Assembly (NCBI GenBank): GCA_903813345.2
Contig: CAIIXF020000003.1
Coordinates: forward strand, 17,374,931 to 17,438,930
Length of the DNA stretch: 64,000 bases
From: Owenia fusiformis
Taxonomy: Eukaryota; Annelida; Polychaeta; Sabellida; Oweniidae
Direction: 5' to 3'
Shown here: positions 20,801 to 23,237 of the stretch, piece after piece
Position numbering within the stretch: the first letter of the stretch is position 1
Layout of the letters: each line of letters begins with the position of its first letter
The notes under the pieces: model-generated
What the model saw: only the letters and a program-made list of their open reading frames with translations
Databases searched by the model: none
What the model was told of the DNA's origin: nothing
Made by a program: the position numbers and the translations under genes

Positions 20801-23237
20801 GGTGTTTGGCATCTGTAACAAATGATAGGTGGTGATATTTTGCATGTTGATGCCTTGTATATTCATGAAATTAACCCATGTATTTAAACAGTTGATTTGT
20901 ACAATTAGGATAAGATATGACATAATTGTGCATTGCGCAGTGAAAGCCAGAGTAGATAAAAAAGATTTCTAGATTTCTAATTAAATCTCGAAATGTTCAC
21001 TGTGTTCCAAGTTAATATGGATTTAATATTTTCCCAATTTCATCTTGAATTTTAATTCTGTACCTTTTAGTGATTTAGAAGCTAGACGGGATGTAAAGAA
21101 AGAAGAAGGCGAGGCATTCGCTCGGGAACATGGTCTCATTTTCATGGAAACATCCGCTAAAACAGCCGCCAATGTAGAGGAAGCTTTCATCAACACAGCT
21201 AAAGAAATTTACCAGAAAATTCAAGATGGCGTATTTGATATAAATAATGAAGTAAGTTCAATAGATGTCACCTTTACTAGACTCTCAGGCTTGGAGTAGC
21301 ACAAAACCTTTACATATTGCTGATATCAAACACCAAGGAGTGAGATATCAGTTTGTCATTTTTTAAATGAATAATGTTATGAGTTACCTCATTTAACTTC
21401 TCGGTGGTTGGAAAGGTTGAGTGGACTAGAGAGGGAACCAAAGCCTTTCTAGATTGGGTTTGAAGAAAAAATGAAATGTTGACCTCTGTGTTTACAGAAT
21501 TACTTAGTCTTGAAATTTATTGTATGAGAATTCATTTCTTTTGGATTTTCTCTATAATACATATATGTTGTACTATTACATATTTTCATGTATGCGCTAT
21601 TTTCATGCTAATATTTTATAATATTTGCTTAATTTAAGCTAGTTTACTCAGATTTAAAATACATGTTGCTTCTTCACTGCATGTTTTATGCATGTTCTAT
21701 TTTATTACACATTTCTTGCGTATAACAGGGTTCTCCAGAAAAATGAATATGTAGATAAACATAAAATGAACTGAGAACCCTGTTTCGGTTATGTGCACAT
21801 TTTTGATGGTATTAGGTGAAATGCAAAGCTTTATTTACATTTTACATTTCCCATTCTCAATTCTGAGTGGTAGAGCTGCCACAGATAAATCAATATATAA
21901 CATACATATATATTCTAATTGCAGAGTAATGGTATAATGTTAGGCCTCCAGCAGTCTCCAAGTCAAGAGCTTCAAACTGTTTATTCAACCTACATGTATA
22001 TTCTAATTGCAGAGTAATGGTATAAAGTTAGGCCCCCAGCAGTCTCCAAGTCAAGAGCTCCAAACTGTTTATTCATCCCACATGTATATTCTAATTGCAG
22101 AGTAATGGTATAAAGTTAGGCCCCCTGCAGTCCCCAAGTCAAGAGCCTCAAACTGTTTATTCAACCTACATGTATATTCTAATTGCAGAGTAATGGTATA
22201 AAGTTAGGTCCCTAGCAGTCTCCAAGTCAAACTGTTTATTCAACCTACATGTATATTCTAATTGCAGAGTAATGGTATAAAGTTAAGCCCCCAGCAGTCT
22301 CCAAGTCAAACTGTTTATTCAACCTACATGTATATTCTAATTGCAGAGTAATGGTATAAAGTTAGGCCCCCAGAAGTCACAAGGTCAAGAGCTTCAAACT
22401 GTTTATTCAACCTATATGTATATTCTAATTGCAGAGTAATGGTATAAAGTTAGGCCCCCAGAAGTCACAAGGTCAAGAGCTTCAAACTGTTTATTCAACC
22501 TATATGTATATTCTAATTGCAGAGTAATGGTATAAAGTTAGGCCCCCAGCAGTCTCCAAGTCAAGAGCTTCAAACTTTTTATTCATCTTACATGTATATT
22601 CTAATTGCAGAGTAATGGTATAAAGTTAGGCCCCCAGCAGTCTCCAAGTCAAGAGCTTCAAACTGTTTATTCATTCCACATGTATATTCTAATTGCAGAG
22701 TAATGGTATAAAGTTAGGCCCCCAGCAGTATCCAGGTCAAGAGCTTCAAACTGTTTATTCATTCCACATGTATATTCTAATTGCAGAGTAATGGTATAAA
22801 GTTAGGCCCCCAGCAGTCTCCAGGTCAAGAGCTTCAAACTGTCTATTCAACCTACATGTATATTCTAATTGCAGAGTAATGTTATAAAGTTAGGCCCCCA
22901 GCAGTCTCCAAGTCAAGAGCTTCAAACTGTTTATTCATTCCACATGTATATTCTAATTGCAGAGTAATGATATTAAGTTGGGCCCCCAGCAGTCTCCAAG
23001 TCAAGAGCTTCAAACTGTTTATCCAGCCTACGTGTATATTCTAATTACAGAGTTATGGTATTAAGTTAGGCCCCCAGCAGTCACCAAGTCAAGAGCTTCA
23101 AACTGTTTATTCATCCTACATGTATATTCTAATTGCAGAGTAATGGTATAAAGTTAGGCCCCCAGCAGTCCAGGAGTCAAGGAGGCATGAATCAAGCAGG
23201 GGGAGGGGGAGACAGTCAAAGTGGAGGGTGCTGCTAG
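11872..23237 (+). CDS. Rab2: Rab2 GTPase, isoform with proximal last exon (7a)
   Basis: Exons: 11872-11917, 16477-16548, 19552-19619, 20269-20351, 20564-20656, 21071-21251, 23139-23237; 213 aa, all in frame. Rab2 recruits effectors to ER-Golgi intermediate, Golgi and lysosome-bound membranes. The N-terminus [16 protein letters not shown] is diagnostic. The P-loop GDTGVGKS is split by intron 1. WDTAGQE (G3), GNKSD (G4) and ETSAK (G5) are all present, as are the Rab motifs [10 protein letters not shown] and [13 protein letters not shown]. The tail reads [16 protein letters not shown] and ends GGCC; the two cysteines are the geranylgeranylation site. Human RAB2A is 212 aa. Exon 6 ends in phase 0, so either last exon fits. 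An AATAAA at 23464 supports use of this end. Confidence 0.95.

What the first reader, a model, noticed from the sequence alone, without database searches (positions are those of the whole stretch)
21900..23237. Rab2 last exon preceded by 14 tandem decoy splice acceptors
The 3' splice site and first codons of exon 7a are copied 14 times in 88-bp (two 79-bp) units directly upstream of the true exon. All have TTGCAG (one TTACAG) before AGTAATGG-type codons. From exon 6 the spliceosome meets up to 14 near-identical acceptors before the productive one. A product from a typical decoy would end after about 30 codons, at a TAA formed by the next unit's acceptor sequence. It would lack the CC geranylgeranylation site and stay cytosolic. 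The conserved acceptors suggest recent expansion or selection. The array could control Rab2 dosage, or the choice between exons 7a and 7b. I know of no described equivalent.
Basis: partly seen in the sequence, partly recalled or inferred. Interest (0 to 1): 0.9.

Follow-up and report, generated by a model that had tools for sequence, protein, structure and literature searches.

The report
Tandem decoy splice sites in Rab2
In an animal of the mollusc-and-worm group, the start of one Rab2 exon has been copied 14 times in a row just upstream of the real one; repeats that copy a gene's own splice site are already described in amphioxus and in a human gene, and this one is more likely tolerated than a regulatory device.

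Summary
In detail: array 21899-23170 (88 bp x 14.7) carries 14 copies of the 3' splice site and first codons of Rab2 exon 7a directly upstream of the true exon (23139-23237); a second terminal exon, 7b, starts at 23933. Decoy products are short and lack cysteine. 'No described equivalent' is wrong: minisatellites that copy an exon-intron boundary are described in amphioxus as 'mirages', where papers report undisturbed splicing, and a human ABCA7 VNTR copies a donor, with one copy used and array length affecting splicing. The host is a lophotrochozoan. The same genome has further arrays at a CHD7/8-like, a Hox, a Rab27 and an NDR/LATS-type kinase exon, so Rab2 is one case of several. All 14 AGs intact is expected from overall similarity (P=0.29); decoys show no codon constraint; 7a and its decoys have weak predicted acceptors, 7b a strong one. 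Best reading: a largely neutral mirage minisatellite upstream of an optional terminal exon. Regulation is possible but unsupported; no RNA was available.

The parts
21071..21251 (+). Rab2 exon 6, donor GAA|GTAAGT at 21252
   Evidence: joins in frame with exons 3-5 and with 7a or 7b; Rab2B/Rab2A best PDB matches
21899..23170 (+). 88-bp tandem array (mirage minisatellite): 14 decoy acceptors plus the true one
   Evidence: TRF; unit table
21925..23138 (+). 14 decoy exon starts: 21925, 22013, 22101, 22189, 22268, 22347, 22435, 22523, 22611, 22699, 22787, 22875, 22963, 23051
23139..23237 (+). true exon 7a, ...GGCC-stop
   Evidence: translation
23464..23469 (+). AATAAA poly(A)-signal-like hexamer after 7a
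   Evidence: pattern scan; not evidence of use
23933..24037 (+). exon 7b, alternative terminal exon, ...GEGCC-stop, strong predicted acceptor
   Evidence: translation; acceptor score 11.1 bits
47810..47937 (+). second acceptor array in the window: 31-bp units, decoy exon starts 47842 (TTTTTGAAG), 47873 and 47904 (TTTTTGCAG), true CHD7/8-like exon start 47935
   Evidence: TRF, sequence

Best explanation
The array is a 'mirage' minisatellite. A segment spanning the 3' splice site and the first bases of Rab2 exon 7a was duplicated in tandem, and the copies spread and were homogenised by unequal exchange or conversion. Only the last copy keeps the rest of the exon, so selection need act only on that copy, and the decoys upstream are tolerated as intron sequence. 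Exon 7a is one of two possible terminal exons and has a weak predicted acceptor, so most Rab2 is expected to use 7b. When 7a is used, the copy joined to the real exon body and its poly(A) signal is presumably favoured (terminal exon definition). Shown: structure, unit relationships, frames, predicted acceptor scores, and other arrays of this kind in the genome. Inferred: the duplication mechanism, near-neutrality, and that decoys are mostly skipped.
For: Structure matches the mirage description in PMC3087553 section 16 (read whole): repeats of intron 3' end plus exon 5' part, authentic junction at one end, edge units least homogenised. Here unit 15 differs 15-27% from the rest; among units 1-14 the end units 1 and 14 have the highest mean difference (10.8 and 10.9%, the others 5.4-9.1%); some neighbours are near-identical (6/7 1.1%, 10/11 2.3%). 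No codon-position bias in the exonic part of units 2-14: 6, 6, 7 changes. AG intact in 14 of 14 decoys has P=0.29 under the array's own divergence, 52 differences in 1214 sites. Same genome: acceptor array at a CHD7/8-like exon; acceptor array at a Hox homeobox exon, 12 of 13 decoys keeping AG; donor array at a Rab27 exon, 41 units counting the true exon end (gene); donor-derived 23-bp array at an NDR/LATS-type kinase exon, 10 of 33 matched units keeping GTAAGT. Predicted acceptors: 7a 3.1 bits, 7b 11.1 bits.
Against: The human ABCA7 VNTR, whose 25-bp unit copies the exon 18 donor, is not inert: one copy is used as a cryptic donor and array length affects exon 19 skipping (passages). In the Rab2 array a core from -16 to +7 has 2 of 28 minimal changes where 7.3 are expected (P=0.012, region chosen after looking; window -20 to +3 gives 3 of 28, P=0.042), which could mean weak selection on decoys; both core changes are in unit 14. 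Array length in other individuals is unknown and no RNA was examined, so 'mostly skipped' rests on the amphioxus papers.
Confidence: 0.6

Rival explanations
1. Neutral array, but the decoys are used: splicing often lands on one of 14 acceptors like that of 7a, so isoform 7a is largely lost as truncated, non-prenylated tails and Rab2 relies on 7b.
For: 13 of 14 decoys score 3.1-3.7 bits against 3.1 for the true 7a; products are short tails without cysteine. In human ABCA7 one repeat copy is used as a cryptic donor and gives a frameshift.
Against: Amphioxus mirages reportedly do not disturb splicing. Exon 7a keeps a complete open frame ending in GGCC, which suggests it is still made.
Confidence: 0.24
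2. The array is a selected splicing attenuator: decoy acceptors compete with the true one and set the amount of 7a, or make a soluble Rab2 on purpose.
For: Mild depletion of changes in the acceptor core; two terminal exons that could be balanced; VNTR length affects splicing in ABCA7.
Against: No codon constraint in decoy exons, AG retention as expected without selection, similar arrays at unrelated genes, no RNA evidence.
Confidence: 0.12
3. Assembly artefact.
For: Tandem arrays are a classic misassembly site; PMC3087553 reports an apparently aberrant draft assembly of one mirage.
Against: Units 1-14 differ from one another by 1.1-13.6%, the contig is 34.9 Mb long and the array is only 1.27 kb. 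No reads were seen.
Confidence: 0.04

Closest known systems
'Mirage' minisatellites of amphioxus (Adh3, globins BflGb6/BflGb9, troponin C, PGBD5)
   Same: [quoted passage not shown] many copies carry AG/GT signals; authentic junction at one end; edge units less homogenised (PMC3087553 section 16 and PMC3902484 section 17, both read whole)
   Different: Host here is a lophotrochozoan; the array precedes one of two possible terminal exons; 14 decoys (the globin BflGb6 haplotypes had 6 and 3 units)
Human ABCA7 intron 18 VNTR
   Same: Tandem array whose unit copies the host gene's own splice site: 25-bp units, the first GT being the exon 18 donor, 12 to about 427 units (passages of PMC5954066)
   Different: Donor, not acceptor; decoy use and a length effect on splicing are measured there and unknown here. 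The donor array at the NDR/LATS-type kinase in this genome is the closer parallel
Human gene tandem repeats at exon-intron boundaries; intron gain by tandem genomic duplication
   Same: Repeats at boundaries that can activate cryptic splice sites (passages of PMC2812944; for intron gain, listing only)
   Different: No new intron is seen here; the copies lie in intron sequence
Intronic minisatellites linked to splicing without copying a junction (TERT intron 6; CeRep25B in C. elegans)
   Same: Tandem repeats in introns of alternatively spliced genes (TERT abstract start; C. elegans passages)
   Different: TERT repeats lie more than 1 kb from junctions; the passages on CeRep25B describe a satellite shared by many genes
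Decoy exons and NAGNAG tandem acceptors (recalled)
   Same: Competing splice sites
   Different: Decoy exons are dispersed cryptic exons; NAGNAG sites are 3 bp apart, here 79-88 bp

Membership tests
Mirage minisatellite | tandem repeat unit spans an exon-intron boundary of the host gene | tested here: met
   unit centred on TTGCAG|AGTAATGG with intron and exon sides both repeated
Mirage minisatellite | authentic junction at one end of the array | tested here: met
   last unit runs into the 7a open frame
Mirage minisatellite | homogenised inner units, less homogenised edges | tested here: met
   pairwise table and means
Mirage minisatellite | length differs between haplotypes or cells | not testable with these tools
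   one copy of the locus found in the assembly
Mirage minisatellite | regular splicing is not disturbed | not testable with these tools
   no RNA data
Mirage minisatellite | host is a cephalochordate (the hosts in the two papers that use the name; not definitional) | tested here: not met
   Lox5-type homeobox followed by KLTGP (that this marks lophotrochozoans is recalled)
Alternative last exon pair | two terminal exons, each with own acceptor, stop and poly(A) signal | tested here: inconclusive
   acceptors and stops present; AATAAA at 23464 after 7a; none after 7b up to about 24700, not scanned further
Splicing-modifying VNTR (ABCA7 type) | array length changes splicing | not testable with these tools
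   no RNA data, one allele
Splicing attenuator / regulatory decoy | decoy use measurable and regulated | not testable with these tools
   no RNA data
NAGNAG tandem acceptor | acceptors 3 bp apart | tested here: not met
   spacing 79-88 bp

The most novel reading that the evidence does not exclude
This lophotrochozoan genome carries a large class of splice-site arrays in which decoy copies of a gene's own acceptor or donor, from a few to about 40, sit next to the true site. At Rab2 the array length acts as a tunable brake on isoform 7a, trading membrane-bound Rab2 for a soluble, non-prenylated form.
Probability: 0.1. Interest if true: 0.8.

Novelty: new member of a known kind. Interest (0 to 1): 0.45.

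Why it matters
Such arrays are natural experiments on a basic question: how does the spliceosome choose the true site among many near-identical copies? One genome offers 14 decoy acceptors at Rab2, 13 at a Hox exon and about 40 donor copies at Rab27, so the choice can be read from cDNA. The literature gives both answers, no disturbance in amphioxus and real effects at human ABCA7, so more cases are useful. They are also raw material for new introns and exons, as proposed for amphioxus globins.

Tried and rejected
A GFP family search was also empty, but its control rang in none of 14 genomes, so it shows little. A COX1 search found no match. Species by assembly size in papers: two irrelevant papers. 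Owenia fusiformis fits loosely (505.8 Mb and 12 chromosome-scale scaffolds, passages of PMC9977687; here 498.26 Mb with most matches on contigs C1-C12), not proven.

Selection on decoy AGs: not supported (P=0.29). Longest invariant run: P=0.17 for units 2-14, 0.016 for all 15, 0.006 for units 2-13 only; treated as weak. Special seeding of arrays at splice sites: 17 arrays outside the protein matches in 97 sampled loci (some may be coding, e.g. in L036), 2 within 30 bp of a protein-match edge against 0.72 expected and 2 against 1.45 within 60 bp; no clear enrichment, and match edges stand in for exon edges. Decoys as internal cassette exons: best in-unit donor-like site 5.4 bits, at the low end of 20 training donors (4.9-12.4), and the exon would be about 14 nt; judged implausible. 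Known RNA families in 20000-25500: none over threshold. Rows dropped: two of 19 CHD7/8 joins (acceptors 48950, 61242) were left out of the acceptor training set as poor; Rab2 exon 2 was not used either. In one search three CHD array positions (47874, 47905, 47936) were off by one and their scores are not used. The original mirage paper (PMC117041) is not held; its content is taken from PMC3087553 and PMC3902484. Rab2 alternative last exon in print: nothing relevant among 15 listed of 1,161.

The paper says it does. Confidence in the inert reading was lowered (0.66 to 0.60), the two rivals with used decoys raised (0.20 to 0.24 and 0.10 to 0.12), the novel case raised (0.08 to 0.10), its interest lowered (0.82 to 0.80) and overall interest lowered (0.50 to 0.45) for that reason.

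Full report
What is there. The window holds a Rab2 gene on the + strand. Exons 3-6 lie at 19552-19619, 20269-20351, 20564-20656 and 21071-21251, with two possible last exons, 7a (23139-23237) and 7b (23933-24037); both joins are in frame and end in two cysteines and a stop. The protein's best PDB matches are Rab2B and Rab2A. In a search of the assembly, the pieces at this locus match at 74-94% identity and no scored piece elsewhere exceeds 73% (only the best candidates are scored), so I take it as the only Rab2 copy found. I confirm 14 decoy acceptors, their spacing, the single TTACAG and the early stops. 11 of 14 decoy tails are 30 residues, the others 8, 27 and 33; 0 of 14 has a cysteine. 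The 88-bp unit gave 15 matches in the assembly, all in this array.

How the units relate. Some adjacent inner units are near-identical (6/7 1.1%, 10/11 2.3% different). Among units 1-14 the two end units have the highest mean difference (10.8 and 10.9%; the others 5.4-9.1%). The last, true unit is 15-27% different because its 3' part is the real exon. That is the pattern of a tandem array homogenised inside and less so at its edges. Changes in the exonic part of units 2-14 fall evenly on codon positions (6, 6, 7), so there is no sign that the decoy tails are kept as coding sequence.

Is there selection on the acceptors? All 14 decoys keep AG, but with 52 differences in 1214 sites the chance of losing none is 0.29. 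A wider core, -16 to +7, has 2 of 28 minimal changes (P=0.012, region chosen after looking); a conventional -20 to +3 window has 3 of 28 (P=0.042). The two core changes are both in unit 14. A longest-run test gives 0.17 (units 2-14), 0.016 (all 15) or 0.006 (units 2-13). I read this as weak at most.

Acceptor strength. From 21 acceptors of this window (17 of 19 CHD7/8-like joins, and 4 Rab2) I built a small matrix. The true 7a scores 3.1 bits, 13 of 14 decoys 3.1-3.7, and the TTACAG decoy -0.3. 6 of the 21 training sites score below 3.1 when left out. 11.6% of 3,637 non-training AG sites in the window (decoys included) score at least as high as 7a; 0.14% reach 7b's 11.1 bits. So 7a and its decoys look weak, and 7b looks like the default terminal exon. 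This is prediction from a small set, not measurement.

It is not peculiar to Rab2. In the same window a 31-bp array (47810-47937) repeats TTTTTGCAG|GAT upstream of a CHD7/8-like exon that starts at 47935. The CHD7/8 label rests on a human CHD7 query recalled from memory; Pfam gives an SNF2 domain and the best PDB match of one exon is CHD1. I then sampled the genome at conserved exons: 97 loci from homeobox (38), Rab (29) and kinase (30) searches, 227,213 bases. At least 3 of 97 hold an array built from a splice junction; arrays at other, unmapped exons of these loci were not checked. (a) L011, a Hox gene: 76-bp units, 13 decoy copies of the homeobox exon's acceptor, 12 of 13 keeping AG. (b) L059, a Rab27 gene, where the array belongs to the exon upstream of the sampled one: about C7:15784864-15786733, 41 units counting the true exon end, 38 with GTAAGT and 3 with GTACTG. 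(c) L033, an NDR/LATS-type kinase (best PDB match STK38): a 23-bp array of 35 copies that begins just after the donor and copies its intronic side, 10 of 33 matched units keeping GTAAGT. A stricter self-comparison of the sampled exon edges flagged 1 of 97, L011. Arrays are frequent here in general, and their placement next to exons is not clearly more than chance (2 against 0.72 expected within 30 bp, 2 against 1.45 within 60 bp).

What is known. [quoted passage not shown] PMC3087553 (section 16 read whole) describes them in globin genes, cites Adh3 and other loci, reports 6 and 3 units in two haplotypes, somatic instability at Adh3, and RT-PCR suggesting no interference with splicing. PMC3902484 (section 17 read whole) adds troponin C and PGBD5. 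In human, the ABCA7 intron 18 VNTR has a 25-bp unit whose GT is the exon 18 donor; one unit can be retained through a cryptic donor, and array length affects splicing (passages of PMC5954066). Human tandem repeats at exon-intron boundaries can activate cryptic splice sites and form introns (passages of PMC2812944). Other searches (listings: 25 of 48 papers, 20 of 1,685, 15 of 42, 12 of 49, 12 of 52, 10 of 45) showed no splice-site array in a lophotrochozoan; passages on intron minisatellites of earthworm metallothionein genes (PMC12783039) do not mention copied junctions. These cover open-licence PMC only.

Host. A homeobox at C1:18257149 matches a Lox5 query over 67 residues at 93% and is followed by KLTGP, which I recall as a lophotrochozoan signature. 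Most matches lie on contigs C1-C12. Owenia fusiformis is a possible match but is not shown.

Interpretation. The simplest account is a mirage minisatellite next to an optional, weak terminal exon, tolerated because only the last copy has to work. Whether decoys are spliced cannot be told from sequence; amphioxus and ABCA7 point in different directions. Regulation of Rab2 by the array is testable but unsupported.

Noticed in passing
window 47810-47937: A second acceptor array: 31-bp units ending at a CHD7/8-like exon start (47935), decoys at 47842, 47873, 47904.
   Followed up: yes
L107:2565-3000, L097 whole, L059:1-422 (C7 about 15784864-15786733): Rab27 gene with 41 tandem 45-bp units (true exon end included) of an exon 3' end and donor; 38 keep GTAAGT, 3 read GTACTG.
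   Followed up: yes
L011:479-1497: Hox gene with 13 decoy copies of the homeobox exon acceptor, 76-bp units; 12 of 13 keep AG.
   Followed up: yes
L033:667-1472 (gene on minus strand): NDR/LATS-type kinase: 23-bp x 35 array beginning just after the donor, copies of its intronic side; 10 of 33 matched units keep GTAAGT. Much like the human ABCA7 VNTR.
   Followed up: partly
window 4552-63532: Gene order amino-acid permease-like (just below Pfam's cut-off), Rab2, CHD7/8-like. I recall RAB2A-CHD7 and RAB2B-CHD8 as neighbours in human, so this may be old linkage; not tested.
   Followed up: no
window 45313-46239: A degenerate array starts about 20 bp after a GTAAGT donor-like site at the end of a CHD7/8-like exon, without copying the donor.
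   Followed up: partly
window 23650: Strong acceptor-like site (ATCTGTATTTGCAG, 10.3 bits) between 7a and 7b; whether an exon follows was not examined.
   Followed up: no
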